Source: Medicago truncatula (taxonomy: Eukaryota; Streptophyta; Magnoliopsida; Fabales; Fabaceae). Taken from it: DNA of 64,000 nucleotides. Shown here piece after piece: positions 22,220-64,000 of this stretch (position 1 is its first letter; every line of letters starts with the position of its first letter). The notes under the pieces were generated by a model, which had not been told where the DNA came from, searched no databases, and saw nothing but the letters and a program-made list of their open reading frames with translations. The position numbers were made by a program, and so were the translations under genes. Location of the stretch: NCBI RefSeq assembly GCF_003473485.1, contig NC_053045.1, positions 36,802,494 through 36,866,493 on the forward strand, written 5' to 3'.

Positions 22220-22377
22220 GAAAGTGTTTGGATGGAGGAATGTTTTGAGGGAATGTAATGTTTCGAGGGAATTCAACTACTTTAAGGTGAATTCTATTGT
22301 TTGAATTCAACTCAAAGTAGTTGAATTCCCTCAAAACATTATATTCCCTCAAAACATTTCCCCATCCAAACACACTC
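22220..22377. mobile_element. Tourist/PIF-Harbinger-like MITE (158 bp)
   Basis: A near-perfect hairpin: the left end GTGTTTGGATGGAGGAATGT pairs with the right end ATTTCCCCATCCAAACACAC, and inner arms GAGGGAATTCAACTACTTT are inverted too. It is flanked by the 3-base duplication TAA (22217-22219 and 22378-22380), the Harbinger-type target. There is no coding capacity. Confidence 0.85.
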
Positions 22378-43355: not shown

Positions 43356-44216
43356 GACTGGTGCTAGTCACACAAAAAAAAAAAAATAAGTTACACCCCA
43401 TAATGACTAATATACCCTTTAACTAAAATAACAATTTCAAATCAACTAAATTTACATTAACGTAAATTGAACATAAGTAAATTTAATTTACATTAACCTA
43501 GATTGAACGTAAGTAAACTGAATTTACAAACTTAATTTACATTAACCTAGATTGAACGTAAGTAAACTGAATTTACATTAACCTAGAATGAACATAAGTA
43601 AACTTAATTTACATTAACCTAGATTGAACGTAAGTAAACTGAATTTACACTAACCTCTTATATACATACGTAAACTAAATTTACATTAACCTAAATTGAA
43701 CATAAGTAAACTTAATTTACATTAACCTAGATTGAACATAAGTAAACTTAATTTACATTAACCTAGATTGAATGTAAGTAAACTGAATTTACACTAACCT
43801 AAATTGAGCATACGTAAACTTGAATTTACATTAACCTACATACGTAAACTACACTAACCCCTTTTATATACATACATGTAAACTTAATTTACACTAACCT
43901 CTCACTTAAAATCAAATTGACAGACATATCTCATACCAAAACAAACAATAAAACAAATAGAAACTCATCGAAAATGAAATTCATGAAATTCACTAACCTT
44001 TATGAATATAGTACAGATCAATAACAAAGATGTTGATTCAGATATTGGTTGCACATCTATGGTGATTTGTGGATGAAAGGGGGTAAGGGTTCAGAATGAT
44101 CATAAAAGATGAGTTTTTAAAAATTTACATGAAGAGAGCAATTTTGGTATTATTGTAAAATTTTAAATAAATTTAAGTGTAACTTGTTTTTTTTGGGATG
44201 TGACTAGCATCAGTCA
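43356..44216. mobile_element. TIR element (~0.86 kb) carrying an internal minisatellite
   Basis: Left end GACTGGTGCTAGTCACAC and inverted right end GACTGATGCTAGTCACAT are followed by A-run and AAGTTACAC words on both sides, so the TIRs are ~40 bases. TAATATTA flanks both sides (43348-43355 and 44217-44224), an 8-base hAT-like target duplication. However, the wider flank TTAGAGCTATAATATTA / TAATATTATAGCTCTAA is itself palindromic and may belong to the TIR. There is no transposase. The inside is dominated by the minisatellite at 43449-43903. Confidence 0.65.
43449..43903. repeat. ~35-base minisatellite, about 12 units
   Basis: Consensus unit AATTTACATTAACCTAGATTGAACGTAAGTAAACTG (given here as two overlapping words: AATTTACATTAACCTAGATT and GATTGAACGTAAGTAAACTG). 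Alternating CGTAAG/CATAAG and CTGA/CTTA variants suggest higher-order duplication of unit pairs. The last units are shortened and contain TATATACATA. Confidence 0.9.
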
Positions 44217-45438: not shown

Positions 45439-48059
45439 ATGAGGCCTCAGAGAACATCGATCCACGCTATCTCCACATGGGTCAGGCGACAACCACCAAA
45501 GGTCAAGGCTTTTCTCGCCGTTGTTTCCGGTATGGCCGCTCTTGTTCTCCTCCGATTTATCGTTCATGATCACGATAATCTTTTCGTCGCTGCTGAAGCT
45601 GTTCACTCGCTTGGAATCTCTGTTCTTATCTATAAACTCATGAAGGAGAAGACTTGTGCTGGTTCGTAATTGTTTTCGTTTCGATTTGGCAAAAAAATTG
45701 ATTTTTTTGGGTTATTATTCATGTTTGAATCTTTTTGTTTTCTTGGGTAGGTTAAAAATTTCCCCTTTTTATGTTTTGTCAATCAAAAGTTGTTTTTTTT
45801 TTTTTTTTTTTTAATAATTAGTCTGAATTCTCATGCAAAAAAACATAAAACATTACATGGGTCATGAAAAAGATCAAATTTTTCAGATTTTTTTTCCCTT
45901 TAGATTGGCATTGCCCTTAAAAAAATTAGACGGGTCAGGAAAAATTACATGGGCTAATTTGATTTGTGTTTGTGGTTGCTTTAATGTGTTATTTTTGGAT
46001 CAAGAAAGGCATGTATAAATTAAAAGGTATGATTTTTTTTTTTTTGTTTTTTGTTTTGATGATGGTTATGAATGATGTAACAGGATTATCACTCAAATCC
46101 CAGGAATTGACAGCTATATTTTTAGCTGTGAGGCTGTACTGTAGTTTTGTCATGGAATATGACATTCACACCATACTTGACTTGGCGACTTTCGTAACTA
46201 CGGTGTGGGTTATATACATGATTCGTTTTAAATTGAAGGCGAGTTACATGGAGGAGAAGGATAACTTTGCAATATACTATGTGGTAAGCTCCAATTGTTT
46301 GTTTCATCCTAAATGGTAAAGATGTAAGTTTTGACATTATTAAATTTTATAGTATCTTTAGATGATAGAGATGTACTATCAAGCATCTCACAACTTCGAT
46401 ATGTCACCTGTGTGCAATGGTAGTATACATGAAAAGTTGTCATATTTGTTTCACAGAATCTTTAACTATTGGTTCCGTAACGTTAAAATTGTCATATTTG
46501 TTGACAGTACCGATGCAAATTTCCTTCTGCATGAATAATATGATTATGAAATCTGGATCCATAGAATAACCTTGGTGAATACTGAATAGTATTGTGTAAC
46601 ATGCTAACAAGCTATCATGTAAATTGGACTTGTTATTACTAACCTGTAACGTTGGTTGTGGTTATGAGAACAAAGACTTCAAACTCATGATATGCCTGCA
46701 TATTAGAATAGGGTTTGGGGTGTTGTATACAGCATGCACATGATTTACTAGGATCCTCTTCTTGCAATAGAACCAAGTGACACATCACCAAATAAAACCT
46801 GATGCAATCATATTTGAATACGGTTCTCCTTTTAAACCCCCTCTTCTTTTAGTTCTGTACTTTCTGCATATTCTCAAGAATTTAAATTATTCCTCTTCCT
46901 AAAGGCTTGATTCTGTGACTTTTTTCTGGTAACATGTGCATTTACCTTCCATCATTATCAGCTTGATATATTTTTTCTTTTGAAAATGGTTGCAGGTGAT
47001 ACCATGTGCCGTGTTAGCCCTGCTCATTCATCCATCAACTTCTCATCATATATTAAACAGGATTTTCTGGGCATTCTGTGTATACCTGGAAGCTGTTTCA
47101 GTTCTACCCCAACTGCGGGTCATGCAGAATACCAAGGTATAAATTTTTAACTCCAGGATCTATGTCCATCATCTAATGTATGGGATCTGATTCTATTACT
47201 TTCCTTCTGAATTGTTTCATTTTGTACTTTCAGATTGTTGAGCCATTCACTGCTCATTACGTTTTTGCACTTGGCGTAGCAAGATTCTTAAGCTGTGCTC
47301 ATTGGGTTCTTCAGGTCTGTTCATAAATTTTTTGAGTCGTCTTTCCCGTTGATCAAGGAGTGGGATATGAACATTGTTTGATAAATTTTAGTCTTTCTTT
47401 CATTTTCAATGGTATAGTATAGCTAAGCCATTTTTATAGGCAACATGTGCTCTAAAGCTCTTGCCGTTTTGTGAGGGCCAAACTCATTGTGGGTGCATTT
47501 TATTGTACAATAGACAAGGCGACCTTACCTTGTTTGTAATGCAATAGATACTGATTCGACAACCCGAATCTGTTATGTCCTAGTTACATGGCAGAAACTC
47601 CATCCGTTACAATGTTTGTGTGTTCGGACTCTTTTAAGTTTACATCTTATTGATAGTCATCTGGGTACAAGACTACTGCTGTTTTTGCACCAACTCTCTG
47701 GTTTTGTAGCTTTCTTGGATTCTATAACCGCATGTCTCCTTCTACTAACATACTATTTCTTGCATCAGGTGTTAGATACCCGTGGACATTTGTTGGTTGC
47801 CTTGGGGTATGGTTTATGGCCGTCGATGGTTCTTATCTCAGAAATTGTCCAGACATTCATCTTAGCAGATTTCTGTTACTATTATGTCAAGAGGTTAGCA
47901 TAGTTCCTAATTTGTTTTTACTATTTATCGCACCTTTTTGCTGATAGTGACTTAAGATATTTCCTGCATGACTCCGTGCTGTTGTCCTAATGATATTTAT
48001 TTAATTGCAGTGTTTTCGGAGGACAGCTTGTTCTACGCCTTCCCTCTGGAGTGGTGTGA
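45439..48059 (+). CDS. ERD2-like ER lumen protein-retaining receptor family protein, 272 aa
   Basis: Seven-helix membrane protein of the KDEL/HDEL-receptor (ERD2) family; plants have canonical 215-residue ERD2 and longer ERD2-like proteins of about 272, and this matches the latter. Exons 45439-45661, 46084-46283, 46996-47136, 47234-47314, 47769-47893, 48011-48059 (819 bases). The N-terminal extension MRPQRTSIHAISTWVRRQPP is basic and precedes the first helix. Family landmarks: NLFVAAEAVHSLGISVLIYK, SLKSQELTAIFLAVRLYCSF, YLEAVSVLPQLRVMQNT, AHYVFALGVARFLSCAHWVL and QTFILADFCYYYVKS. The end is GGQLVLRLPSGVV with no dilysine signal. The role in cargo retrieval is inferred from ERD2. Exon 5 is duplicated as a relic at 60921-61065. 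Confidence 0.9.
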
Positions 48060-48548
48060 TTGCAGATCTTCACCCTCACATTTTCTTGTTAACTTAATCA
48101 GGCATCATGTTTGGTTACCCATGTTAGACTTAGAGTACATTTTGTGTTGACATGTTTATTCTGTTCCTTGGTGGAAGTGTAAAGTTGGGGATGAACGATA
48201 ACTAAATATATTTTATGTTCGAGGTACCGTTATTTATTATGGTTGGGAAATGCTTTATACTACATGAAGTATCTATTTGCTTAGAGCTTTTGTCGCAACT
48301 ATTCCACATGCTCAAGTTCTACGGAGTCTTAGGTTTTGGTCTATATCTTTTATTTGCAGTGGAGTCTAATGAAATTTCGGATCATACACTTTGCTTTGAA
48401 AGTATACTAAAAAAGTCTTCTTCATTTGATCATTAATTAAAGTTCTCAATTTGCTTTTGACCTTGATGATCTCACAAATACATCTTATGTATGATAATAT
48501 ATTATAATAATAATTTTAATAAGCCTTGTATCACGGTTGTTAGGAGGT

Positions 48549-49828
48549 TCAAGGACATAGGTTCCTTGCTAGAATCCCCTCAAAAGTAATTCCAGGTCCA
48601 AAAGCAAGTATCAAACCCCATTCAGGATATCCTCCTTCCTTTCTAATCTTCTTGCTCTCATCTAGCATATACTCAAGCACATAAATAATGGTATTGCTGC
48701 TAGCATTTCCATAATCCATAAGAGCTTTCCTGCTAGCATTCAGCTTCTCTGGCGACAACTCAAGTCGCTTCTCCACGCGATTCAATATCGCAGGCCCTCC
48801 TGGATGCACAGCCCAAAACAACTTATTATACTCCTTATTCTCCAACTCAACAGCATCCATTAGTCTGTCACAGAATCCCTCAACGTTGTCTTCAATGATC
48901 TGAGGAAGTTCCCTCGCTAACGTGAAGCTTATCCCTTCCTCCGTCAGCCTCCCATCAATCTTCTTCTCTGTGTCTGGTATAAACTCTTGAGCTGAAGTGT
49001 GTAGCTCAAATAATGGCATCTCAGTTTCCAATTTTGGGTCTGAACCAATTATCATAGCACCAGCACCATCTCCAAAGAGTGCTACGCCAACAAGATCATA
49101 AGGTCTATCAGCACTTGGTGGCTTGAATCCAATAATTGTAGTCTCAGAAGTAGCAAGCAAAACTCTACTTCCAGGGTTGTTCTCAGCTATGTCTTTCGCA
49201 ACGCGTAGACCAGCCACACCTCCTGAGCATCCCGAAAAATAGAGCATGGTTCGTCGAATAGTAGGGTTTAGTCCCAGTCCTTTTGATAGGTAAAGGTCAC
49301 CGCCGGGTAGCCTAGCTTCACTGGATGAAACATAAACCACATGAGTTATGTCCGATAAAGATCCACCCCAATTCTTTATGCAAACCTGGGAAGCCTCGAT
49401 TGCCATTTGCGTCACCGCCTCGTTACATATCTCTAGTCGTTGTTTTACGGTGGAGGCGCCTTCGACAGCAAGTTCGGGATACTTTTTAAGTATCTCCTCA
49501 TTCATAACAACATACCTTGTTTTCACTGTGGTTGTCTTGCCTGTTTATACCATATGAAGCCAAATTACATGTCAATGAAACAAAGTTGTTCCCTATGTAT
49601 GCATAAAAAAAGTGAACTGATATGTGTATTTTACTATATATACTTACAAAGTCTAGCCAGTTTTTGCTTAAGCTCAGGATTGTCACAATTAGTGTCCCTA
49701 AAATATCCATCAACTAAATATTCTTGCATCACAAGTTGGTGAGGGAAAGCTTTGCCAAGAGCCAATATAGTAGCCTTCCCGGCGGTAACCTGCTTTGTGA
49801 CACCTCTCACTATACCTTCATCTCCCAT
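48549..49828 (-). CDS. PKSB: Type III polyketide synthase, LAP5/PKSB-like, 390 aa
   Basis: Chalcone-synthase-fold enzyme of the anther-specific LAP5/PKSB group, which condenses fatty acyl-CoA with malonyl-CoA to alkylpyrones for pollen-wall sporopollenin in the tapetal ER. Exons 49648-49828 and 48549-49540. The intron splits a Cys codon (T|GC), the intron site shared by the whole family. Catalytic triad: C165 (FSGCSGG), H306 (WAVHPGGPA) and N339 (DYGNASS). LAP5-type signatures are TTTVKTRYVVMNEEIL, VYVSSSEARLPGGDLYL, AKDIAENNPGSRVLL and FGPGITFEG near the end. Beside the active cysteine the usual LAP5 GCYGGV reads GCSGGV, so pocket shape may differ. A relic of exon 2 lies at 61117-61390. Arabidopsis LAP5 neighbours a neutral invertase, as here. 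Confidence 0.92.
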
Positions 49829-49917
49829 ATTTCTTCTTTTTGCAAAGATCAAATGTGTCTACTTTTCTATGCAGTGAATGTTATCCACAACACCTTGAAT
49901 AGAGAAATTAAATAGGA

Positions 49918-49927
49918 CTATATATAG
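49918..49927 (-). promoter_or_regulatory. TATA box of the PKS gene
   Basis: CTATATATAG lies 90 bases upstream of the PKS ATG (49828) on the minus strand. The palindromic form reads the same on both strands, but no gene starts on the other side within 5 kb. Confidence 0.5.
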
Positions 49928-50227
49928 TCTTCTAGGCATGTTGGGAGTAATAGCGTGACAGATTTAAAATAGGTAAATGTGTGTTAGTTGGGAGGTAAGT
50001 TGTTCATAGTAATCGTATCATATTTTTGTCGCTGGGAGGAGGTTGGGATTTGGGGGAATTCTTAGTTGGATTGCAGTTACATCAAATTTGTATTAGTGAA
50101 CTATTTTGAACTATCACAAAAATAAATCGGGACATAATAGCCTTTCCGTAATTTTTTTATTTTTATTTTACCGCTGTTTAACTGTGGTAAAGCTGAGACG
50201 ACGTTCCACCTGTCAAGTAGTTGACAT

Positions 50228-51029
50228 TAGGGGTGTTCACGTCCAATCCAATCTAATGCAAACCGAGGTCATGTCCAATCCAATCGTTGTTTAGAGTGCA
50301 TTTTATTAGGCTATTGATTTCAGATTTTGTTTATTAAGAGAGTGGAACTTTTTGGTTAATTGTAATTGATCTTAATTTTGTGTTTAAAATGGTTTTTGTA
50401 AGACACATAAATATTTGAATAACTTTTCTTGAATGACTACTACTTTGTTTGCCTTTTATAAGGCTACTATTTTATTTGTGTTATGAATAAATGAAAATAT
50501 GATGTGGATGTCCATTATCCCTAGACCTTCTATATTTCTTAACTATTATGACTAAATGACTTTATTGATATTTAGTCTCATGGTTCTTCATGTAATTGTA
50601 AGTTACAACTTTTGTATCCTATAAATAGGACCTACACTGTCATATAAAGACACACTTGTGAAGTAATACAAAACATTTTTATGTTCTCTCTTTGTTTCTT
50701 TCTCATTATATACTTTATAATATCTTGCAATGTTAAGGATCAATTTCATAACAATTTGCTTTTATTTTCAACTTATTCATCTTTTTCATAACCATAGCTT
50801 TTATGAAATGTCATAAACATAAAACTTATTTTCTTAAATAAAATAAAAAATTATACACAACAATCAAAACAGAAAACCAATCCAATCCAAACAGAACAAA
50901 TTGAATTAGGTTGGATTGAATTTGATTTTAAAACCAAACCATTTGGATGAACAAATAACAAAATCGAAGAGATTGGATCATATGATTTTTCCTTTTAAAA
51001 CTGAACCAATCCAATCCGCGAACACCCTA
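50228..51029. mobile_element. hAT-like non-autonomous element with nested solo LTR
   Basis: Ends TAGGGGTGTTC and (inverted) TAGGGTGTTCG, with a perfect 8-base duplication GTTGACAT (50220-50227 and 51030-51037), the hAT hallmark. Sub-terminal CCAATCCAATC repeats occur at both ends. Without the nested LTR and its duplication the element is about 522 bases, with no transposase. Confidence 0.88.
50479..50753. mobile_element. Solo LTR (275 bp) nested in the hAT-like element
   Basis: Fossil LTR with inverted ends TGTTATGAA and TTCATAACA and a perfect 5-base duplication ATTTG (50474-50478 and 50754-50758). A promoter-like CCTATAAATAGG sits mid-way. Copia-like by size and end structure. It is younger than the hAT element that hosts it. 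Confidence 0.85.
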
Positions 51030-51955
51030 GTTGACATCGTGTATTTGAAACGAACTTAAGAGACATTTAGTTTTTTAATAAAAATATTTTAGGACAATTT
51101 GGTTCTATTTTTCATTTTTTTTAAATTCCTAAATTCCAAAATAAAAAATTTCATATTCTTCCTCCTTCTTTCCTTTATTGAAAGATCCAAATCACATAAT
51201 TTGTTCATGTTTTTTTTTAATCAATGACAAATATTTATCCTTTTTTATATTAATAAAAAACAAATATTTATTCTCTATTTTTTTTAAGCATCAGTGGAAT
51301 AATATATTTTCTTGAAAGAATGTGTCAGTGACTAATATTTATCACGTGCTTTTTATATTTATCACTAAATAATTTTTTGTCTTTTTTATTTATCAATGAC
51401 AAATATGTGACTCACATTTCTTTTTTATATCTATTAGTGACAAATGCTTGTTAAATATAGTCACAAACATTGTTTGTTAATTGTTATAATTATTGTTTGT
51501 TATAATTATCAGTGAAAATGATTTTTCGTATCTTTTTTATATTAATCAGTCAAATATTTTTCTAAAACATACCAATGTCCTTTTAAGTCTATAAAATACA
51601 CCAATTTAAAATGTCAAAATTAAGAAAACAAAATCTAAGAAAATATCCTCTAAAAAAACAATAAAAAAAATGTAGCAGCAACACCAAGCCGAGAGAAATG
51701 GTTACTTGGATATAACACCAATAAAAATATTTGAGTACACACAAATAAACAAATTAAAAGTGAATAAATTTAAATGATGTTAACTATTTTTTCCCCATAT
51801 TATGTAATTGTGCCCAAATACTTGTATTTGAAATTGTGACCATAGAAGATTTGCTCTCAGAAGATCGAGTAGTTCAACTGATTTGAATTTATGGGATAAT
51901 GAAATGGAGGTAATGAGCTAAAATCTAGATTAAACATAAAAAAAACTAATTACTA

Positions 51956-52228
51956 CTCCCTTCGTCCCATAGTGAAGATCCAGTTGATCGTTGCACATAT
52001 ATCAATACACAATTTTGACATTTAATATATTTAGGTTTTTATTTTTTATTTTTTTTACAATTATATATTTAGTTATCTATTAGCAAAATTTATGAAAAAT
52101 TGACATTTTAAAAATATCCGTTGAGACAAATTCAACATCATAATTAATAGAAAAATATGATAAAAATATATTAAATAAATAATGGACATAATCAAATTGA
52201 GTTACTCATTGTGCTGGAACTTAGGAAG
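51956..52228. mobile_element. Stowaway-like (Tc1/Mariner) MITE, ~273 bp
   Basis: Left end CTCCCTTCGTCCCATAGTG is close to the Stowaway consensus CTCCCTCCGT. The inverted right end reads CTTCCTAAGTTCCAGCACA. TA dinucleotides flank both ends (51954-51955, 52229-52230). The right end has drifted. Confidence 0.75.
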
Positions 52229-52821
52229 TAACAATTGCACTTAAAAAAAAGTTATCTCAATTCTCAACCGATTCTTCTATTTCTAGCCTCATCCAAATTC
52301 TCTTTATCAGTACTATTTTCCTTTTCCATTTTTGTGAAACAACAAGCATAGTTGTTGTAACCGTGCCTTTTTTCTGCAAACCCTAACCCTTGTAATTTGA
52401 CATTTTCCCTCATACCTTAACCCAATTTTTGAGTATATATATATATGAGAGCAAAATCAAAACAAAGGGTGGACGGGAAAAAGAAAACAAAGGTGGTGAA
52501 AATGGAGAAGGGGGATAACAAAGAAAAAAAATACATCTTTCCTCTACATACACCATTCCACTCACTCCAACATTCATTCATCAAAAACTACAAAAGCTTT
52601 TAAAATCGATCTGCCATGTAACCCCTGAAACCTTTCAGCTGGTCACTATCGATTAATGGCGGAGCGAGGAAATTTATGAAATTCGGGCAAAAAATTTATT
52701 GCAAAATTACATGTGACATAATGTATCAACGGTCATAAATCGAATTTTTTTTTAATTTTAATTTTAATTAAAAAAACGAAATAAAAGAGGTTTATCATTT
52801 TGTCAACAAAAGTACAATTTA

Positions 52822-53626
52822 AAATAGGATTATTAATTGAAATTGACCATGTAATATACGTGAAGTCTGAAAATTGACCTTGTAATTAAATAACATATAT
52901 TATGACCATGTAATTCGAGATTTTTATTATTTATAACCCTGTAATATACGCGAAGTCCAAAAAAGCAATCGAGAGATTGAATTTTTTCATGATTTGTCAG
53001 AGGCGAGTTAAGAACGTTAAAATATGGCTTTACACAAAAAATTTATAAATTTTTGACAAACGACAAATTAATTATGAATTTTTAAAGTGTCAAAAGCTCA
53101 AAAAACAAAACAATGGAAATCTCGATCTATAAATCGAATTTTGAGCTCATTATTTGCAGAGACATCTATAAAAATACATAAAAAGGATCTGTAAAGTTTC
53201 ATAGCATTTCAAAGTCGTTTAAATTTATTTTGATTTTTCAACCAAAACGTGCAAAATTGAAATTTTGTTCCGCGTAAGCGTATACTCACAAGTCAAATTT
53301 AGTTCCCTAATTTTGTAGGCATGACTAGAACATGATAAGAACCTTCACAATGAAATTTTGTAGTCTTTAAACGAGATAGAAATTAATTATAAATTGTTTA
53401 AGAAATTCATAATTATGAGGAAATAAAAATTCATAATTAATTTATCCCTGATCGAAGAAATTTAATTTCTTATGTAAAGCTATATTTTAACGTGCTAAAC
53501 ATGTATGAAAAAAATAATGAAAAAATTTAACATGTAGGTCGCATTTTTAGACTACACGTATTTTAAGGGTCATTTTTCAGACATAATGTATATTACAGGG
53601 TCAATTTGAACAATTAACCCGTTAAA
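52822..53626. mobile_element. Long foldback element (~0.8 kb)
   Basis: Outer arms: AAATTGACCATGTAATATAC at the left, and inverted AAATTGACCCTGTAATATAC at the right. GTCTGAAAATTGACC matches GTCTGAAAAATGACC further in. Inner pairs are GTTAAAATATGGCTTTAC (near 53017) with GTAAAGCTATATTTTAAC (near 53474), and ATTAATTATGAATTTTTA (near 53069) with TAAAAATTCATAATTAAT (near 53424). The whole is one long hairpin, Mutator-like or foldback in style. Confidence 0.7.
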
Positions 53627-54100
53627 ATAAGAGAGATGAACCCATCAATAGTGTGCTAAATAAAATTCCGAGACCTATTTGCGTGTGAGAATTTTTAGAT
53701 TTCCCAAATTTTTCTTTTTATAAGCGTGTTAATTAGCTTTTAGGTTGAATCTAATGTGCAAAAATTATCGATCTAGCCCAAGCGACCGCACGGGGTCATC
53801 GGACGGTGAAACCGCCCCTGCCATCGATGCACCCGTCACCACCACAACCACAAGGGTGGCCATGAACTCCCTTTCTTCCTCACTTTTTATTTTTTATTTT
53901 TTATCTTTCTTATCTTCCATTTTTTGTTTACAACTCTCTCCTTGTCTCTATACAAAGTTGCGTCCCTAACTCCCTCTTTTCCTCTCACACACATGGTAAA
54001 TGTTTTGTTTCGTTTATTAGGATTTTAATTTTCTTTACTTTATGTTACTATTTGTTTGGACACTTCTTTTTATGATTGTTATCATAATTATCATGTTTTA
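53627..54100. other. Spacer with a local GC-rich patch
   Basis: Bases about 53775-53870 are GC-rich (GCACGGGGTCATCGGACGG and CACCACAACCACAAGGGTGG) in otherwise ~30% GC DNA. A 74-codon plus frame covers it but has no family features; see the rejected list. It may be captured foreign or genic DNA. Confidence 0.4.
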
Positions 54101-54106
54101 GTTAAG

Positions 54107-54502
54107 GATTAATGGTTGAAATGACCCCTTAAAATATGTCAAGTTAGGAAATAGCCTTGGTAAAATAAAATAAAATTATAATATTTTATGATTCTTCTTA
54201 TTTTGGTCTTCAAGCAGTCTAGTCACATAGAGGGCGCGGACGTACCAGAAAATCTTGCACGTGGTTGCTGACATGTTGATTTGTTTGATGATCATATCAT
54301 TTTTTTAAGATCATCAAATAAGTACACTTAAAGCAGCCACATATAGGATTATCTGACATGAGACCACATTATGTGTGACTATTTAGAAGACCAAAATATG
54401 AACAATCTTTAAGGGTATAATTTATGTTTTTTATTTTACATAGAATATTTCTAAACTTTAAATATATTACATGAAGTATTTCAACAATTAGCCATTTAAT
54501 CA
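54107..54502. mobile_element. Foldback MITE (~395 bp, arms ~125 bp)
   Basis: Left arm GGTTGAAATGACC, AGTTAGGAAATA, GGTAAAATAAAA, ATTTTGGTCTTC and TAGTCACATA. The inverted right arm reads TTGTTGAAATACTT, AGTTTAGAAATA, TGTAAAATAAAA, ATTTTGGTCTTC and TAGTCACACATA. The loop is ~140 bases with no frame. Confidence 0.7.
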
Positions 54503-54854
54503 ATGAGCCCAAGCTCAACCTTTTTGCTCTTTTTAAAAATCTGAATTTGACTATTTTCTAAAAACAAAAATAAAAATAAAATAGGTTGTGAGCAGTGGCT
54601 ACTTAAAATCTACTTTGGTTTGGTCACTACTCAAATCTTTTTCAAATCTCAAAACTTATAATTGATGATTATTTTTAAATCCTATTTTGGTTTAATCATC
54701 ACAAATGTTCAATAACAAATCCAAATCTAAAAAAAAAGTAATACTACTCCAAATCCTCTTTTGATTTGATTGTTACAATATTTTTAATAGATCTAGTAAA
54801 CACAAGTAAGTGACTATGTTGTCAAATCATTTTTTGGGAGGGATATTGCAAATT

Positions 54855-54945
54855 ATATGTAGGGTCCGAGTTCGAACTCCGAACACCCCACTTTTTTATA
54901 TTTAAATTGCGTAAACTCCAGCCACTAGACTATTTAACATTTTTT
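54855..54945 (-). repeat. tRNA-derived SINE head, copy 2
   Basis: On the minus strand box A-like TAGTCTAGTGGCTGGAG is followed by GTGGGGTGTTCGGAGTTCGAACTC containing box B GAGTTCGAACTC (shown only in part). Same family and strand as 16845-16965. Confidence 0.6.
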
Positions 54946-55664
54946 TTTGTTTAGTCATTGCAAATATCGCAAAGCCAATTACTAACTTGTAATTTTGACT
55001 CCCAAACCTTAAATTTGGTTTTAAAGAATACTTTTTCATTTTAAAGAGTTTTTCCAACGTTTTCTCAATTTTAATAAATTCTAATAGCTACTACATTGTA
55101 TTCTAGCAAGCCTCAAATTTTAAGTGGCAACATATAAAGAATTTCAATTTTACCTCTTTTGTCATTTAAATTCATTCCCACGATCTATTTATGGTACATA
55201 AAAGTTTTCTGGTAGTTAAAATTGTAAATCTATTTACATGGGAATGGATTCCAGATATAAGACACGACTAAATTGTGGTCGAACACCAAATTCATTATAC
55301 TTAATTACTAATAATTACAAATTCAAATTTGGCCTATAAATAAAAATAGACGAGGTTATATTTTCATTTATATTGATTAAAATAAAAAATGCATTAAACT
55401 AATTAACCCGCCAAAAAGATAATTAAAAATCGGAGGCTTTTAGGACCAATTTGTTATAACTTTTTTTAAAATAAATTTTTATAGTGTTTCATATGTGTTA
55501 TAATATTTTAACAAAGACTTTTTATAAGAAAACTTTAATTGAGAAATTGGTTTTAACATCTTATCTTAAAAAGTCATTCTAAATATTGCATCATTTTGGT
55601 AGAATTTTTTTTGAATATTATTTTTTAAATCTCTAAAATAAAAAGCTATTTCAAATAACATCTG

Positions 55665-55808
55665 TTTTAGGTTGGCTTTGGGTGGGTGTGGTAGGCGTTT
55701 TGTTAGTGCCTGCCCCGGTCCTCTTTTCTTGTTCAAATTTTGTCCACGAGGTTTTTGTGTTTCTTATACATTCTTGACGAGAATAATCTTTGTCGATTAA
55801 AAAAAAAT
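55665..55808 (+). mobile_element. Short retroposon 3' tail (LINE-like)
   Basis: A relatively GC-rich segment (GTTGGCTTTGGGTGGGTGTG, GCCTGCCCCGGTCC) ends in an A9 tract. Flanks AGCTATTTCAAATAACAT (near 55647) and AGCTTTTCATAAACAT (near 55810) may be a decayed target duplication. No coding part is left. Confidence 0.45.
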
Positions 55809-56255
55809 AGCTTTTCATAAACATAATTTTTGGAAGATAACTTTTTGAAAAAATATGTGATTTTTATTATTATATTTTGAAAGAATGTGGTTTTTTTTTT
55901 AATAAAATCTATAGCAATGAATATTTAATTTAATGAATGTCAAAATTTCTCTTTTAACTTGTATCAAGTAAGTTTGAAATAACTTATACTATATTTTTTA
56001 GTAAGTTTTTAAAAAAATCCATTTTTAAAAATACAATGATTTTTTTTTTTACATCTATAACAAAAAGGATCTAAATTAAAAGAAATACATTATAACTATG
56101 AGTTATACAAATTTATTTAGTGGAAAATCCCATGTCAGCCTAAAAACATCACTTGAAACATGAATGAAAGAGTAAAGAGATACGAGGTACTTTGTTAATG
56201 ATTGCCTGGCCTCATCTATATTGTCGTATCAAAGGTGAAACATTTTTTTCATACT

Positions 56256-56633
56256 CCTTAGATTTTGTTTGCGAGTTTGGAGAGGAGAGGAATGAAAGAC
56301 TTGGAAAAAAAAAAAGAGTAAGCGGATGAAATAGAGGACATTGAAAAAAGGGTTTTGGGTTGCTTATTTTTCTTCAAAATATAAAACTCTCCTCATATGA
56401 ATAACTAAAATATTGTATTGAATGAGGATTTTGGAGGATTTATATGAATTCTTCAAATTTAATATATGTTGTTATAATATTCTTAAAATTAAAAATATAT
56501 TAATCATAAACATTAATTTATCACTCTCTAAAAAAATACTCTTTCAAAAAATGTAAAAGATTTCTCAATTTTCCCCTATATTTCTCTCCCCTCAAAGTCT
56601 TCCTTTCCCTTCAAAACTTCCAAACAAAGCCTC
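56256..56633. mobile_element. MITE (~380 bp) followed by a truncated relative
   Basis: Left end TTTGTTTGCGAGTTTGGAGA and inverted right end TTTGTTTGGAAGTTTTGAAG are followed by G/A-rich stretches. Directly after it, at about 56637-56720, a single arm TCTTGTTTGAGAGTTTGAAG of the same kind occurs without a partner. A 20-base direct repeat (56197-56216, 56810-56829) brackets both. Confidence 0.6.
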
Positions 56634-57219
56634 AGGGGTCTTGTTTGAGAGTTTGAAGGGGAGGGGTAAAGAAGGTTTTGAAAGGTGGAAAATACGAGGG
56701 GAAATAGAAAAAAATTTCAAATTTTTTAAAAGAATAGTTTTGTAGAGAAATTTTTCAATTTCAAGTTGATAATTGAAAACCCTAAACCTTCATATTTTCC
56801 CCTCAACGAAATGATTGCCTGGCCTCATCAAAATGGAAAAATCAACAACGATTGTAATTATCAAGTTGTAATAATGTGAATCAATAGAATATTGTTGCAT
56901 TTCCATTCCAATTGAGTAGAACCATTACATAAACTTACAACATTAGTCTCATAATTAATTGTATAAAAAAAATTAGTTTCTTATTTACATTTTATGTTTG
57001 CTTACTAGTTTACTTTAATTTGAATGCCGGACTGTAGAGTTACAAAGGTCCAAAAATTGGCATTGTTCGATTTGAATAAGTTCACAAAAACTAGAGATTT
57101 TTCTCTTTGTTTTGCAGGAAAACGAGTATAGAGTAAGCTCAAAACCTGTTCTACATTTTTTAGTAATTCACGCAGTCACACCATTGCATCATTCCATTAG
57201 TTAATGTACATAGCAATTA

Positions 57220-57239
57220 ACGTCATTGCACTATAAATA
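57220..57239 (+). promoter_or_regulatory. XIP copy 1 core promoter: ACGTCA plus TATA box
   Basis: ACGTCA (57220-57225) precedes TATAAATA (57232-57239). The same arrangement recurs at XIP copy 2. TGACGT/ACGTCA is the core bound by TGA-type bZIP factors. Confidence 0.55.
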
Positions 57240-57395
57240 ACATTTTCTAGTCACCACTTAGTCAATCACCTAATCCTCAAGAGTCAAGGGGTTGTTATCA
57301 ATCACAACAATACCAAATAATTATCTTTACTTTTTTTTTCTTTCTTTCTTGATCATAAAAAAAAATCCTTATACAATCTTAAGCATACATAATCC

Positions 57396-58675
57396 ATGAA
57401 TTCAACAAACTCACGTGTAGCTGATGAAAATCTTTCTATGTCATTTCAAACTTGCGAGAAAATTTGTTTGGGACCTAAAACCCCTTTAAAAGGGAAGTTT
57501 CAGGCTTCTCTTGGCGTGCATGAAATTTTTAGCCCTGAGGTAATAATTAAATACGAATTTCAGTCATTATACACTCTTTTTATTTTATAAAATAGTCATT
57601 GAAAACATGTCAATAAATATTTAAAATTAATCAAGGCTGTGCATATAAATTTGCATGTTATGATATATACACTACAATATATGCAAGGTCTGCGGATAAT
57701 GTATAATATATGCAAAGTCCGAGTTCGAATCCCGGACACCATAAAAAAAAATATACACTGCAATATGGTCTTTTAATATAAATTTGTAATGTTTAAAGAC
57801 TCTCCTACTCTTTTTTTCTTCTCTTATAGACTTGGAAGGCAGCTTTGATAGAATTAGTGGCAACTGCCTCTCTAATGGTCACCTTCACTGCCTCCATTAT
57901 TGCATGCTTGGACTCACAAGAACTAGATCCTAAGCTTATTATTCCCTTTGCAGTCTTCATCATAGCTTTTTTGTTCCTAATTGTGACAGTTCCTCTATCT
58001 GGTGGCCATATGAGTCCTGTTTTCACATTCATAGCTGCTCTAAAAGGCTTTGTCACTATTTCTCGTGCACTCCTTTACGTGTTAGCACAATGCATTGGCT
58101 CAATAATTGGTTTCTATATACTAAACTGTGTGATGGATCCAAAGTTAATAAACACATATTCATTAGGGGGTTGTGCTCTTGGTGACAAAGGACTCAATTC
58201 TAGTATTAATCAGCACGAAGCTTTGTTATTGGAATTCTCTTGCACATTTTTGGTACTCTTTTTGGGTGTCACATTGGCTTTTGACAAAAAAAGGTCAAAG
58301 AATTTGGGCTTGCCATTGGTGTGTTTGGTGGTAGCTGGTTCCATGGCATTGGCAGTATTTTTGTCTATAACGGTATCAGGTCGGACCGGTTACGCTGGCG
58401 TTGGTCTTAACCCAGCAAGATGCTTAGGCGCGGCGTTGCTTCATGGAGGCTCATTATGGAATGGACATTGGCTTTTTTGGGTTGGACCTATCTTGGCATG
58501 TTTACTCTATTATAGTGTCTCTATCAACCTACCTAAAGAAGTTTCAGTTTGGGATGATGAAGAATATGTTGTCTTAAAGCTGCCTCTTGGTTCTTGTAGG
58601 ACTATTCCTAATGGTGACATTTTAAATGATATCACAATAGAAGGAGGTGCACAAGGCTATCAAGTCCATGTATGA
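57396..58675 (+). CDS. X-intrinsic protein (XIP aquaporin), copy 1, 329 aa
   Basis: Six-helix MIP channel of the XIP subfamily; characterised XIPs from other dicots pass glycerol, urea, boric acid or hydrogen peroxide and little water. Exons 57396-57539 and 57830-58675. The first NPA motif is replaced by SPV (SGGHMSPVF, 110-112). The second is NPARC (242-246), whose cysteine is the XIP signature. Helix LSGGHMSPVFTFIAALKG and GYAGVGLNPARCLGAALLHG form the half-helices, and the arginine of NPARC fits the selectivity filter. A long charged loop GDKGLNSSINQHE follows helix 3. The C-terminus is acidic and soluble (WDDEEYVVLKLPLGS). The intron holds a SINE fragment. The N-terminus MNSTNSRVADENLSM is 14 residues longer than in copy 2. 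Confidence 0.9.
57670..57745 (-). repeat. SINE head fragment, copy 3, in the XIP copy 1 intron
   Basis: Minus-strand GGTGTCCGGGATTCGAACTC (box B GATTCGAACTC) is followed by GCATATATTATAC-like sequence as in the other two copies. Box A is missing. Confidence 0.5.
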
Positions 58676-58779
58676 AAAGTGATGATAAACTTTGTGACTT
58701 TGTTGTCACTCACATACTAGTAATAGTTGGTTTAAGGGAAGGGAAATGATATCTCATTCACTTTTCCCCCATTAAAATA

Positions 58780-59190
58780 TAAGTTTTTAATGTTAGAACA
58801 AATATGGTTCAGTGAATCAGTTAGAACTACTTATGACTTCTTATTTTTATTGTGTTTTACCTTTTTATCTTTTAAAAATAAGTAATACTTATTTGATTTT
58901 GTAGTTTTAAATATGTGACACGAACTTTGATTTTGACTGTGTTTAGATGGTTTATATGGTATGATTTCATATTTATTTATTTTGTTTATTTAGTATGGAC
59001 GTCATCCATCCTAAAATACATATGTTTTGACGAGTGTTTTTTTTTAGTAAAAATGTTTAGGATATGTAAGTGAAGTTTGACAAGTTCAGAAGACATAAAT
59101 CAATTTTTAAATGATTGAGAGTTTCAGCTCAAGATTTTCTTCTAGCTATCTCTATTTATGAGTTAGGCTAACGTATTTTCAATTGACGAT
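58780..59190. other. Intergenic, nothing recognised
   Basis: AT-rich sequence downstream of the XIP copy 1 3' UTR. Confidence 0.5.
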
Positions 59191-59705
59191 GTTTGCATTG
59201 TTTGTTTGTTGTAAGACGTGCTTGGATGCCTTTAGGGTGCACACAGTTCTTTGTAAGAAGCTTCTAAGCTTCAAGTACATGCATGACTTTGTTAGAGATG
59301 TCATTTTTTATATTTTTAGGTGGGCGAGAGCATCTATGAAGAAGGAGGCGCCTCTAAACTTCTTGACTGACCCACAAGAAGGAAAATTGACACTTAAGCC
59401 AATAGACATGTTGATGTACGGTGGGTAGGAGCGAAACATGCATATTTAGACTATATTGGGTCTCCTCGCTTGTGGGATTGGGGATCGAAGTTTTTATTAT
59501 GGGACACACAACCCTCAAAACCACTTTAAGCAAACGAATCAAACATGAGAAAACGTGTTCGAACAACCAACATGTTTTTATATCATTTATGTTAGACACT
59601 TTTGACTTTGTAGCACTAAAAATTGATGACCTTCTAAAAAGAATTCAAAAGGTCATATGCAACAATGTTATGTCTTCTAAATCTATTAACATTGTATTTA
59701 AATGA
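59190..59705 (+). pseudogene. Fossil of a repeated plant element-type reading frame
   Basis: Fragments such as ARASMKKEAPLNFLTDPQEG and, further on, SPLVGLG with MGHTTLK and KRIKHEK match a protein segment I recall as repeated widely in legume genomes next to reverse-transcriptase remnants. Coding is broken in several places. Family assignment is from memory and tentative. Confidence 0.45.
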
Positions 59706-60058
59706 TTGATTTTACCATTTAAATGTTATCCACTTGCCTTATAAAATAAGAAATAAAGTTTAAAAAAAGAATTTTATCAAATAAATTTTATCTTCTTTTT
59801 TTTGTGTACCAAAAACAATTTTATTTTATCTTTTTAATAATTACTTGAGGTGTCTTAGCAGCAATATGGAGCAACCTTTATCATCCGCATCAAAGAGAGA
59901 GGGAAACCAATTCTGTTGCAATTTATGAACAAGAAATAACGAGATCCGGATCCACGTTTATTACAGAAGTGGGCCCCATCGAAAGTAGCAGATTTCATTT
60001 CAATTTCAATCTGCATTGATAAACAAAACCGCAACAGAATTTTCCGTCACCGACGAAG

Positions 60059-60844
60059 ATGCTGCCAAATCTCCGATCCCGGCGACGCCCCCGTTACGGC
60101 AGCCTTCTATGCGCTGTCGTTTCAGCACTTCTTCTCTTAACAACCCTCTCCTTCCTCCGTAGCCACACTCACCGCGTTTTCCCCTCTCACTCTGTAAATT
60201 ACGATTCTCTCCTCTCCGATTCATCCAACGAAGACACCACCGGCGGCGAAGATACAATCGACGCACTCGACGTAATCGAAGAACAACAGACACAAGAATC
60301 AACAAACGACGCAGAAGAAGACGACGAACCAATTGAAGAAACGAACAAAGCTTCAGGCTATTTCTTCTACCACGTAGAAGGTGTAATTCGAAGATCATTC
60401 AGCAAACAATCAATGATGATGACAATGGATCAATCAAACGAAGGAGTGAAGATTTTCGAAATAACGGCGGAAGATAAAGGGAAGACAGCATTTGGTTCTG
60501 ATGATGTTGCGGTGGATGAGAATGTGAGGATGAAGATGATGGAAGTGAAGGGAATTGAGGATGCACTTTTGTTGAAAATTGGGAAGAAGGTATCGCCTTT
60601 GAGAGAAGGTTGGGGTGATTGGTTTGATAAAAAAGGTGATTTTTTGAAGAAGGATAAGATGTTGAGGTCTAATTTGGAAGCATTGAATCCTTTGCATAAT
60701 CCTATTTTACAAGACCCTGATAATGTTGGTCTTACAGGACTTACCAGAGTTGATAGATTGTTGCATAAGTCATTGTTGCAGGAGTTCAAGACTGTTCCTT
60801 TTCCTTCTAGGAAAATCTCTAGGGAACCCAAGTTAGCAGCATAG
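60059..60844 (+). CDS. Single-pass type II membrane protein, plant-specific, 261 aa
   Basis: Intronless frame beginning MLPNLRSRRRPRYGS, a basic cytosolic tail. One hydrophobic anchor spans about residues 16-34 (LLCAVVSALLLLTTLSFLR), followed by a luminal/extracellular region. The region 55-95 is very acidic (EDTTGGEDTID, EEDDEPIEE). The remainder is charged, with FFYHVEGVIRRSFSK, VSPLREGWGDWFDKKGDFL and a C-terminal NPLHNPILQDPDNVGLTGLT, ending KISREPKLAA. Basic tail plus anchor plus stem suggests a Golgi or ER type II topology. I recognise no catalytic domain. GC content of the first 300 bases is clearly higher than the surroundings, as expected of a real coding start. It sits just left of the duplication boundary at ~60.92 kb. 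Confidence 0.8.
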   Translation: MLPNLRSRRRPRYGSLLCAVVSALLLLTTLSFLRSHTHRVFPSHSVNYDSLLSDSSNEDTTGGEDTIDALDVIEEQQTQESTNDAEEDDEPIEETNKASGYFFYHVEGVIRRSFSKQSMMMTMDQSNEGVKIFEITAEDKGKTAFGSDDVAVDENVRMKMMEVKGIEDALLLKIGKKVSPLREGWGDWFDKKGDFLKKDKMLRSNLEALNPLHNPILQDPDNVGLTGLTRVDRLLHKSLLQEFKTVPFPSRKISREPKLAA

Positions 60845-60920
60845 CTTAGTCATAGGTTTATTTAGTAGATAGGGACTGGTAAATTAATGTAGCACCGACT
60901 CTTCATACTGAAGAACGTAT

Positions 60921-61065
60921 GTGGTGTCCAACATATGTCCGTGGGCATTTGTTGGTTGCCTTGGGGTATAGTTTATGGTCGCCAATGGTTATCATCTCAG
61001 AAATTGTTTAGATATTCATCTTAGCTGATTTTTGTCTGTGCAGGTTAGTATAGTTCATAATATGG
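60921..61065 (+). pseudogene. ERD2-like exon 5 relic (segmental duplicate)
   Basis: Matches 47763-47915 of the ERD2-like gene: GGACATTTGTTGGTTGCCTTGGGGTAT there reads GGGCATTTGTTGGTTGCCTT here, and ATCTCAGAAATTGT, TTCATCTTAGC and the donor-side GTTAGTATAGTTC are also kept. Other exons are absent, so it cannot be expressed as a receptor. Confidence 0.85.
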
Positions 61066-61116
61066 TTCTCTCTTTTTTTACTTGTTTCTGCATTCTTTTT
61101 GTAGCTTTTTCTTGGA

Positions 61117-61390
61117 GCGAAATTAACCGCATAACCTAGCTTCACTCGATTACACATAAACCTCGTGAGACTGTGAGTTATGTCTGATAAAGATCTACCC
61201 CAGTTTTTTATGCAAATTTGGGAAGCTTCAGTAGCCATTTATGTCGCTACCTTGTTACATATCTCAAGTAACTGCTTTGTAGTGGGTATGCCTTTAGCAG
61301 CAAGTTCTTCAGTATCTCCTCAGACAAAATCAAGCACCTTGTTTTCACTGTAGTTGTCTTGTCTGGTGATGCAATATATGAAGCAAAATA
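61117..61390 (-). pseudogene. PKSB-like exon 2 relic (segmental duplicate)
   Basis: Matches about 49300-49560 of the PKS gene. On the minus strand it keeps CAAATTTGCATAAAAAACTG-type sequence encoding ASQICIKNWGRSLSDITH, near-identical to ASQVCIKNWGGSLSDITH, and the acceptor side CAAGACAACTACAGTGAAAAC. Several small insertions and deletions shift the frame, an internal ~10-base gap is visible in the serine-ladder region, and everything after the SSSEAR region is lost, including all three catalytic residues. It has the same orientation relative to ERD2-like and XIP as the intact locus. Confidence 0.88.
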
Positions 61391-61870
61391 AACAGTGGAT
61401 CATTTAAATTCAATTGTAATGAATCAATTTTGCAAAGATTAATTCCATTTAAAATATAACTATTCAAACGCGCAACTAAACTTACACTGAGAACTACAAG
61501 TATCTGTATTGTCTTAACTCAAATTATATGTTGATTGATACTTGTTTTGAAAGCTGTAGCTATATAATTGTATTTGCTGTGTTGTAAGAAAAGAGATAAT
61601 AGGCGAAGGTATATGTTTTTTTAATTGACAGAGTGGAGGAGGATAGGGGGGTGTATTGACCGCTTTCGCCGCAGCCGTTGAGTGGACCATAGGGAAGCTA
61701 CACGGTGAAGGTGTCCTTCGAATCTTCGATTGTTTAAGGTTGTGTGGAGAGCATTTAGCGTAAAACAAAACCAAAGTCTTGGTACAAGTGAGGGTACACA
61801 CCATCAAGATACTATCCAATACCAATTAAACTCAATATTATTATCTTATACACATATTTTATATTTTGTT
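61391..61870. other. Spacer between PKS relic and XIP copy 2
   Basis: A GC-richer patch at 61630-61760 (GCTTTCGCCGCAGCCGTTGA, GGAAGCTACACGGTGAAGG) is unlike the surrounding DNA. A 103-codon minus frame crosses it. I do not recognise it and find no splice or family support. Confidence 0.45.
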
Positions 61871-62089
61871 ACCTAATTTTTAATTAATTTGACTGCCGGA
61901 CTGCAGAGTTTCAAAGGTTCCACAAATTGGCATAGTTCTAAGTGAAAGAGTTGGAAAAAACTAGAAATTTTCTCCTTGTTTTGTAGGAAAGTTTAAGTGA
62001 ATATTCAGTTAGCTCAAGCATATTCATTTCTTAGACATTCACGCTGCTACACGATTCCAACACTCATTAGTTAACTTACATGACTATTA

Positions 62090-62109
62090 ACGTCATTGCA
62101 TTATAAGTA
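62090..62109 (+). promoter_or_regulatory. XIP copy 2 core promoter: ACGTCA plus TATA-like box
   Basis: ACGTCA (62090-62095) and TTATAAGTAA (62101-62110) keep the same spacing as in copy 1. The TATA box is changed from TATAAATA to TATAAGTA, which may weaken it. Confidence 0.5.
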
Positions 62110-62248
62110 ACATTTTGTAGTGAGCATTGTCCTAACCCCCTCAAGGGTTGTTATCAACTGTCAATCACAGCATAAACAAATAATGATCCTTATGACCTTA
62201 TCCTTTTCTTAATATACAAGATAGTTAGTTGATAACATAAAACTCTCG

Positions 62249-63682
62249 ATGTCTGTTCAGACCTGCGATAGAATTTGTTTGGCGCCCAAAAACCCTTTAA
62301 AAGGGAAGTTTGGGACCTCTATTGGAGCACATGAGATTTTCAGCCCAGAGGTAATGACTAAACACAAATGTCAATAATTATACATTCTTTCTTTGACAAG
62401 ATTATACATTTTCTCTTGGTCTCATATATTCTACGTTTTATTTTGAGTTTGTTACAATTAAATAACTTAAAAACCTCTTGTAATACAACCTTTTTAATAA
62501 TAACGTGTTGTTGTGTTATGAAACACAACTATAAATCATTTGTTAGTACAATTTTTCCCCTTTGCCGACAATACCATAATACGATGAGGAAGACATACCA
62601 CGTGTAAGTACTCGCCCGATCGATGTTACTATTGTCTTTGTACCATGAACATTCTTTCAAGAGAAGTATATTTTTTGGTCAAATTCAGCAGAAGTGTATA
62701 ACCAAGTAGAGACTTAAGTAGATAATGAACTTTGATTTTTTCCAAAAGAAAGTAGATAATGAACTTATTGTTCTAGTATCACTAGCCTAGTATATGAAAT
62801 AATTACAATCCCTTTTTTCACCTTCTCTTTTAGACATGGAAAGCAGCTTTGACAGAACTAGTGGCAACAGCCTCTCTAATGTTCACCTTGACTAGCTCCA
62901 TTATTGCATGCTTGGACTCACACGAAGTTGATCCTAAGCTTATTGTTCCCTTTGTAGTTTTCATCATAGCCTTCTTATTCTTAATTGTGACAGTTCCTCT
63001 ATCTGGTGGCCACATGAGTCCTGTTTTCACATGCATAGCTGTTCTAAAAGGTGTTGTCACTCTTTCTCGTGCAGTCCTTTACGTCTTGGCACAATGCATT
63101 GGCTCAACAATTGGCTTCTATATACTAAACTGTGTAATGGATCCAAAATTAATAAATACATATTCATTGGGAGGTTGTGCTATTGGTGGCAAAGAACTCA
63201 ATTCTAGTATTAATCAGCATGATGCTTTGTTATTGGAATTCTCTTGTACATTTTTGGTACTCTTTTTGGGTGTCACGTTAGGTTTTGACAAAAAGATGTC
63301 AAAGAATTTGGGGTTGACAATGGTATGCTTGGTGATAGCTGGTGCCATGGCATTGGCAGTTTTTGTGTCGATAACTATAACGGGTCGGGCCGGTTATGCT
63401 GGTGTTGGGCTAAACCCGGCAAGATGCTTAGGCGCGGCGTTGATTCATGGAGGCTCGTTATGGAATGGTCATTGGGTTTTTTGGGTTGGACCTATCTTGG
63501 CATGTTTAATCTATTATAGTATCTCTATCAACCTACCAAAGGAGGGTTTGGTTTGGGTGGATGGAGAATATGATATCTTAAAGTTGGCTCTTGGTTCTTG
63601 CGCAACTATTCATAATGGTGATGTTTCAGATGATATCACAATAGAAGGAAGTGGAGCTGGCTTTCAAGAAGGTCATGTATGA
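62249..63682 (+). CDS. X-intrinsic protein (XIP aquaporin), copy 2, 316 aa
   Basis: Tandem paralogue of the XIP gene at 57396-58675. Exons 62249-62350 and 62834-63682; the intron is at the same place but 483 rather than 290 bases long. SPV replaces the first NPA (residues 96-98 in SGGHMSPVF), and NPARC is at 228-232. The start used is the ATG of MSVQTCDRICL; bases upstream that correspond to the copy 1 N-terminus contain stops, so the N-terminus is 14 residues shorter. Differences from copy 1 near the pore include FTCIAVLKG for FTFIAALKG, ITITGRAGYAG for ITVSGRTGYAG, and GGKELNSS for GDKGLNSS in the long loop. The acidic C-terminal tail ends FQEGHV. Both copies look functional. Confidence 0.9.
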
Positions 63683-64000
63683 AAAGAGATGATAAACTTT
63701 GTGACTTCGTTGTCACTCACATACTAATAATAGTTGGTTTAAGGGAAGGAAAATGATATCCCATTCACTTTTCCCCCAACAACATGTGAGTTTTTAAAGT
63801 ATATACATTACTCAATATATAATTATGACTTGTTTGATTGTGTTTTTGCTTTTTAGTATTTGATAATTGTTTGATGTCTACCTCTAAAAAAAAATGTTTG
63901 ATGTCTAGAAAATATTTCAATTGAAATTATTAAGTGAAACACATAAATATCCGTTTTATTGTTTTTTAATAATGAAAATTTTAGATGAGTTGAGTTTTAA
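63683..64000. other. XIP copy 2 3' UTR and AT-rich flank
   Basis: The first ~95 bases match the 3' UTR of copy 1 (58676-58770), including ACTTTGTGACTTCGTTGTCA, which can form a small GTGAC/GTCAC hairpin. Beyond about 63780 nothing is recognised. Confidence 0.6.

What the first reader, a model, noticed from the sequence alone, without database searches (positions are those of the whole stretch)
47763..63800. Segmental tandem duplication of an ERD2-like / PKS / XIP block with asymmetric decay
The order ERD2-like exon 5 (+), PKS exon 2 (-), XIP (+) occurs at 47.8-58.7 kb and again at 60.92-63.7 kb. In the second block ERD2-like and PKS are reduced to 145- and 270-base relics with ~1.4 kb between them deleted, while XIP stays intact. 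XIP is therefore the only gene whose extra copy was kept. The boundary falls just after the single-exon membrane-protein gene (ends 60844).
Basis: seen in the sequence. Interest (0 to 1): 0.85.

Follow-up and report, generated by a model that had tools for sequence, protein, structure and literature searches.

The report
Tandem duplication that doubled an aquaporin
On this barrel-medic chromosome a block of neighbouring genes was once copied in tandem; the copies of two genes have crumbled to fragments while the copy of a plant membrane channel (an XIP aquaporin) stayed intact, an ordinary route by which plants gain a second gene.

Summary
Four collinear, same-strand stretches match between 47.8-58.8 and 60.9-63.8 kb: ERD2-like exon 5, the start of PKS exon 2, XIP promoter plus exon 1, and XIP exon 2 plus 3' flank. 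Relics include intron sequence, which speaks against retrocopying; most divergences fit one event. XIP1 and XIP2 are intact two-exon XIP aquaporins (Ks 0.33, Ka/Ks 0.28). Corrections: a third XIP, a wrecked pseudogene, lies about 1 kb past the window end; the ERD2-like copy lacked its upstream exons from the start, so its loss says nothing about selection; PKS-XIP spacing also differs (7.4 vs 0.44 kb), partly from a repeat insertion; the membrane-protein gene between the blocks has no second copy found. A species marker points to Medicago truncatula. Two XIPs are already reported for it (Min 2019, via a review), although other papers call XIPs unreported in galegoid legumes or absent in alfalfa. 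Real, well explained, ordinary.

The parts
45439..48059 (+). ERD2-like (ER lumen protein retaining receptor) gene; approximate span. The 5' end is read from an open frame and not proved.
48549..49828 (-). Type III polyketide synthase (chalcone-synthase-like) gene, two exons: exon 2 48549 to about 49540, exon 1 ending at an ATG about 49828. Exon 2 frame intact. Its likeness to anther-specific PKSB/LAP5 is recalled, not tested.
52657..53820 (.). High-copy repeat in the PKS-XIP1 spacer of the first block: 40 other places listed at 86-97% (3,453 first-look candidates, 40 scored)
56969..57395 (+). XIP1 promoter region, matched in the second block from 61834 (strict match 56969-57329 with 61834-62192)
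57396..58675 (+). XIP1, intact XIP aquaporin, exons 57396-57539 and 57830-58675 (stop included), 329 aa; SPV and NPARC motifs
57694..57755 (+). Fragment of a dispersed short repeat inside the XIP1 intron
60023..60844 (+).
60933..61116 (+). ERD2-like relic: exon 5 with an in-frame TAG plus the start of the following intron; matches 47774-47968
61127..61417 (-). PKS relic: start of exon 2 plus intron edge, with gaps and a stop; matches 49303-49589
61418..61833 (.). Stretch of the second block with no significant match in the first block and none other reported in the genome
61834..62248 (+). XIP2 promoter region
62249..63682 (+). XIP2, intact XIP aquaporin, exons 62249-62350 and 62834-63682 (stop included), 316 aa
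63686..63800 (+). 3' flank shared with XIP1 58679-58793 (about 90%)

Best explanation
A stretch running from about exon 5 of the ERD2-like gene through the PKS gene to beyond XIP was duplicated in tandem as DNA, most simply by unequal crossing-over or template switching, after the old polyploidy of papilionoid legumes. In the new copy the ERD2-like part was dead on arrival because its upstream exons and promoter were left out. The PKS copy was then lost by deletion and point decay. XIP2, which brought its promoter, both exons and 3' flank, stayed under purifying selection and is the second XIP gene. Shown: collinearity, relic origin, inclusion of intron and promoter, intact XIP2 frame, dn/ds below 1. 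Inferred: the downstream breakpoint, the mechanism of duplication, that the PKS copy was whole at birth, and any benefit of two XIPs.
For: Four collinear same-strand matches. In the genome searches each relic has one other place, the 47-49 kb gene. Relics and XIP include intron, promoter and 3' flank. Ungapped divergences are alike: ERD2 relic 0.164, PKS relic 0.252, promoter 0.228, intron edge 0.233 (40 bases), XIP exon 2 fourfold sites 0.249. XIP Ks is 0.33, well below the 0.7-0.9 given for the old polyploidy in Medicago and Lotus (PMC2644698 passage). Both XIPs are intact; pairwise Ka/Ks is 0.28. Polarised by XIP3, dn/ds is 0.30 for XIP1 (p 0.0004) and 0.44 for XIP2 (p 0.011). In 2,000 neutral substitution-only simulations at 0.165 per site, 1.1% kept the XIP2 frame free of stops.
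Against: No second copy of the 60023-60844 gene lies after XIP2, so if the unit ended at 60932 that copy was wholly lost; otherwise the copy was not placed strictly head to tail. Divergence is not uniform everywhere: exon 1 has 11 synonymous differences at 21.3 sites against 48.5 at 201.5 in exon 2 (Fisher p 0.008 on rounded counts), and the near 3' flank is only 0.094. This hints at later gene conversion over exon 2 or at a conserved 3'UTR. 416 bases of block two have no counterpart. At a lower divergence of 0.10 per site, 4.9% of neutral simulations kept the frame.
Confidence: 0.9

Rival explanations
1. Two separate events: XIP duplicated locally more than once (XIP3 shows that it does), and the ERD2/PKS fragments arrived in another duplication or transposition.
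For: A third XIP copy stands downstream without detectable ERD2 or PKS relics; PKS-XIP spacing differs strongly between blocks.
Against: Order and strand of all four pieces agree and most divergences agree; two events would have to restore both by chance.
Confidence: 0.06
2. An older block duplication in which XIP exon 2 was later made alike by gene conversion, so the XIP pair looks younger than it is. This would sit on top of the block duplication, not replace it.
For: Exon 1 synonymous divergence is higher than exon 2 (p 0.008) and the near 3' flank is only 0.094; under strict settings only the first 40 bases of the intron align.
Against: Exon 2 fourfold divergence (0.249, 22 of 104 sites) is like that of promoter, intron edge and PKS relic (0.23-0.25), which conversion of exon 2 alone would not predict. 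The XIP1 intron holds a repeat fragment that explains part of the intron difference. Exon 1 offers only 21 synonymous sites.
Confidence: 0.15
3. Retrocopies or transposon-carried gene fragments (Pack-type capture).
For: Relics are short gene fragments lying together; the region holds repeats.
Against: Introns, promoter and flanking DNA are included in genomic order. No long repeats bounding the second block appear in the self-comparisons; short element ends would not have been seen.
Confidence: 0.02

Closest known systems
Tandem XIP aquaporin gene clusters in dicots (XIP subfamily of major intrinsic proteins)
   Same: MIP domain, non-canonical first motif (SPV), second motif NPARC, one intron, neighbouring paralogs
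   Different: Here relics of flanking genes preserve the outline of the duplicated block. That other plants have tandem XIP clusters is recalled, not tested.
The two XIPs of Medicago truncatula reported by Min et al. 2019 (paper not held; quoted in review PMC12036568, passages seen)
   Same: Two intact XIPs in this genome and no other intact one found
   Different: The passages seen do not describe their arrangement, the third broken copy or the ERD2/PKS relics
LjXIP1 of Lotus japonicus (PMC3533510, passages seen)
   Same: Legume XIP with an atypical first NPA motif; 299 aa
   Different: Induced in mycorrhizal roots, though also present in non-colonised cells, and non-functional in that paper's water, urea and ammonia assays. 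Expression of the two genes here is unknown.

Membership tests
Segmental tandem duplication | Several adjacent genes repeated in the same order and orientation on the same chromosome | tested here: met
Segmental tandem duplication | Second-block pieces are closest to the first-block pieces, not to another locus | tested here: met
Segmental tandem duplication | Introns and intergenic DNA included | tested here: met
Segmental tandem duplication | Divergence uniform over the pieces at neutral sites | tested here: inconclusive
   0.16-0.25 for two relics, promoter, intron edge and exon 2 fourfold sites; exon 1 higher (5 of 8 fourfold sites differ) and near 3' flank lower, 0.094
Segmental tandem duplication | Direct adjacency: end of unit joined to start of unit, with both copies of the last gene | tested here: inconclusive
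   Upstream junction lies 89-95 bases after the 60023-60844 gene; no second copy of that gene found in 50 kb downstream
Segmental tandem duplication | Single block in an outgroup species | not testable with these tools
   no other plant genome is held
XIP aquaporin | Major intrinsic protein domain | tested here: met
   PF00230, 101.3 and 97.6 bits, cut-off 25
XIP aquaporin | Non-canonical first NPA box and second box NPARC (definition recalled) | tested here: met
   SPV and NPARC in both proteins; SPV is listed for the Arachis XIP2-1 proteins in PMC6423786
XIP aquaporin | Distinct from PIP, TIP, NIP and SIP members of the same genome | tested here: met
   25 of 31 matches lie outside the three XIP loci and are at most 40% identical; no tree was built
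XIP aquaporin | Plasma-membrane channel for uncharged solutes | not testable with these tools
   needs expression and transport assay
Retroduplication | Intronless copies | tested here: not met
   XIP2 keeps its intron; relics contain intron edges

The most novel reading that the evidence does not exclude
The second XIP was kept because legume XIPs serve arbuscular mycorrhiza, and this duplication gave the Medicago lineage a divided pair of symbiosis-linked uncharged-solute channels, in a legume group where some papers hold XIPs to be lost.
Probability: 0.12. Interest if true: 0.5.

Novelty: new member of a known kind. Interest (0 to 1): 0.25.

Why it matters
It documents how one plant gained its second XIP aquaporin and leaves relics that can serve as markers in related species. 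It also shows at genome level two intact XIPs and one dead copy in what appears to be Medicago truncatula, in conflict with published statements that XIPs are missing from or unreported in galegoid legumes. The kind of duplication and decay is standard.

Tried and rejected
Relics from another locus: rejected; each relic search returned 2 matches, itself and the 47-49 kb gene. Retrocopy: rejected because introns are present. A relic of the 60023-60844 gene after XIP2: none by tblastn over 50 kb downstream. ERD2 or PKS relics between XIP2 and 50 kb downstream: none at E 0.1 or better. XIP3 as closer to XIP2 than to XIP1: undecided; sites unique to XIP3 outnumber those of XIP1 and XIP2, no outgroup was at hand, and intron columns there align poorly. 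Gene conversion over exon 2: a hint only. The global alignments used cheap gap extension, and shuffled controls averaged 74-79% identity, so the strict blocks are used for divergences. Homology of 63801-64187 with 58794-59195, seen with sensitive settings, is weak: under strict settings only one further block (58831-58867 with 63823-63855) remains. Mapping the selectivity-filter residues onto PIP structures gave an ambiguous helix 5 and was dropped. No structure was predicted. Eight paper searches were made and passages of 11 papers were opened; I saw no account of this block duplication there, but Min et al. 2019 is not held and was not read. My note gives CDS ends 58678 and 63685; the right ends with stop are 58675 and 63682.

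Full report
A self-comparison of the window gives four matches in the same order and on the same strand between the two blocks: ERD2-like exon 5 (60939-61067 with 47780-47917, 80%), PKS (61132-61389 with 49308-49565, 73%), XIP promoter with exon 1 (61834-62390 with 56969-57579, 68%) and XIP exon 2 with 3' flank (62812-63800 with 57810-58793, 88%). Sensitive settings stretch them slightly; the only other strong match to the first block is the third XIP described below. Searched against the 430 Mb assembly, each relic matches only itself and the 47-49 kb gene. The search tool skips very common words and scores only its best candidates, so this is strong but not absolute.

Species. The 24-residue NCR247 peptide, which six listed papers hold together with the name Medicago truncatula, occurs once in the assembly at 100%. 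This points to M. truncatula; a close relative with the same peptide is not excluded.

Genes. The first block holds an ERD2-like gene (PF00810 matches at 46077-46307 and 46990-47184), a type III polyketide synthase on the minus strand with an intact exon 2 (PF00195 and PF02797) and XIP1. XIP1 has exons 57396-57539 and 57830-58675 and 329 aa; XIP2 has exons 62249-62350 and 62834-63682 and 316 aa. Both carry the MIP domain, SPV in place of the first NPA, and NPARC as the second. They share 257 of 315 aligned residues. A genome search with the XIP1 exon 2 protein gives 31 matches: two intact XIPs, four pieces of one broken copy, and 25 matches of at most 40% identity to other places.

The third XIP. 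Just past the window end, at window-equivalent 64899-65605 (locus L009), lies a copy about 74% identical to both XIPs. All three reading frames are broken by stops, and the NPARC segment is missing. A weak match (E 0.017) at 64346-64472 suggests an exon 1 remnant. No ERD2, PKS or 60023-60844 gene relic was found with it. So XIP had duplicated on another occasion, and that copy died.

Nature of the duplication. XIP2 keeps its intron and promoter; the PKS relic runs across the exon 2 edge into the intron, and the ERD2 relic runs into the intron after exon 5. That speaks against retrocopying. With strict alignment blocks, ungapped Jukes-Cantor divergences are 0.164 (ERD2 relic), 0.252 (PKS relic), 0.228 (promoter), 0.233 (intron edge, 40 bases) and 0.249 at 104 fourfold sites of XIP exon 2. 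XIP Ks is 0.33 and Ka 0.094. A single event fits these. Against full uniformity, exon 1 has 11 synonymous differences at 21.3 sites against 48.5 at 201.5 in exon 2 (Fisher p 0.008 on rounded counts), and the near 3' flank is only 0.094. Later gene conversion over exon 2 is possible but not needed.

Age. [quoted passage not shown] Ks 0.33 is clearly below that. No absolute date is claimed.

Unequal decay. The upstream edge of the copy lies at about the start of ERD2-like exon 5 (first block 47769-47780, second block 60933-60939), so the copied ERD2-like part never had its earlier exons; its loss tells nothing about selection. The PKS copy was probably whole at birth, because the whole gene lies inside the unit, but that is inferred. 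About 1.33 kb between the relics is missing. Between PKS and XIP matches the first block has 7,403 bases and the second 444; a high-copy repeat at 52657-53820 accounts for about 1.2 kb of this, most simply as an insertion in the first block. For 61418-61833 the search returned only the stretch itself. XIP1's intron also holds a fragment of a short dispersed repeat (57694-57755).

Is XIP2 functional? The pair shows Ka/Ks 0.28. With XIP3 as the third sequence, changes on the XIP1 branch are 18 synonymous and 17 non-synonymous (ratio 0.30, p 0.0004) and on the XIP2 branch 16 and 22 (ratio 0.44, p 0.011), over 164 and 514 sites; 9 further differences could not be placed. Polarising by a pseudogene is imperfect. 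In simulations of neutral substitution without indels, 1.1% of 2,000 runs at 0.165 per site kept the XIP2 frame free of stops, 1.55% at 0.145 and 4.9% at 0.10. XIP2 is therefore very probably a protein-coding gene under constraint, perhaps less constrained than XIP1. Whether it is expressed is unknown here.

Downstream end. The single-exon gene at 60023-60844 stands between the blocks. If the unit ended at 60932, its second copy should follow XIP2; none is found within 50 kb. Either it was lost or the copy was not inserted strictly head to tail. This is the weakest joint of the model.

Known literature (passages only, unless said otherwise). Review PMC12036568 cites Min et al. 2019 for two XIPs among 46 M. 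truncatula aquaporins; I did not read that paper. By contrast, PMC5126082 says XIPs were missing or not yet reported in galegoid legumes such as Medicago and Lotus, and PMC8950044 finds none in alfalfa. PMC3533510 describes LjXIP1 in Lotus, raised in mycorrhizal roots and highest in arbusculated cells but present in other root cells too, and non-functional in its assays. PMC13233624 reports XIP1;1 of black medic as specific to mycorrhizal plants at flowering under drought, but also cites work in which XIP1;1 went down on mycorrhization at the second-leaf stage, which counts against a simple symbiotic role. [quoted passage not shown] A symbiotic role for the retained pair is a guess, no more.

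Verdict. This is a true, well-supported tandem block duplication with standard decay. It is ordinary in kind, with modest value for settling XIP presence in Medicago and as a marker for comparison with relatives.

Noticed in passing
L009:346-1612 (window-equivalent 64346-65612): Third XIP copy, a pseudogene with broken frames and a missing NPARC region, just beyond the window end
   Followed up: yes
52657-53820: Repeat with 40 other places listed at 86-97% and internal inverted repeats; looks like a fairly recent non-autonomous mobile element
   Followed up: partly
   Followed up: no
22224-22373: A 150-base stretch that matches its own reverse complement at 88%
   Followed up: no
43444-43900: Short tandem array; offsets between matches suggest a period of about 72 bases
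   Followed up: no
window-equivalent 96548-104151 (L012, L013): Dense cluster of direct and inverted repeats, mostly 80-93% alike, downstream of the window
   Followed up: no
literature: PMC5126082, PMC8950044 versus PMC12036568, PMC3533510: Published statements disagree on whether XIPs exist in galegoid legumes; this genome has two intact ones
   Followed up: partly
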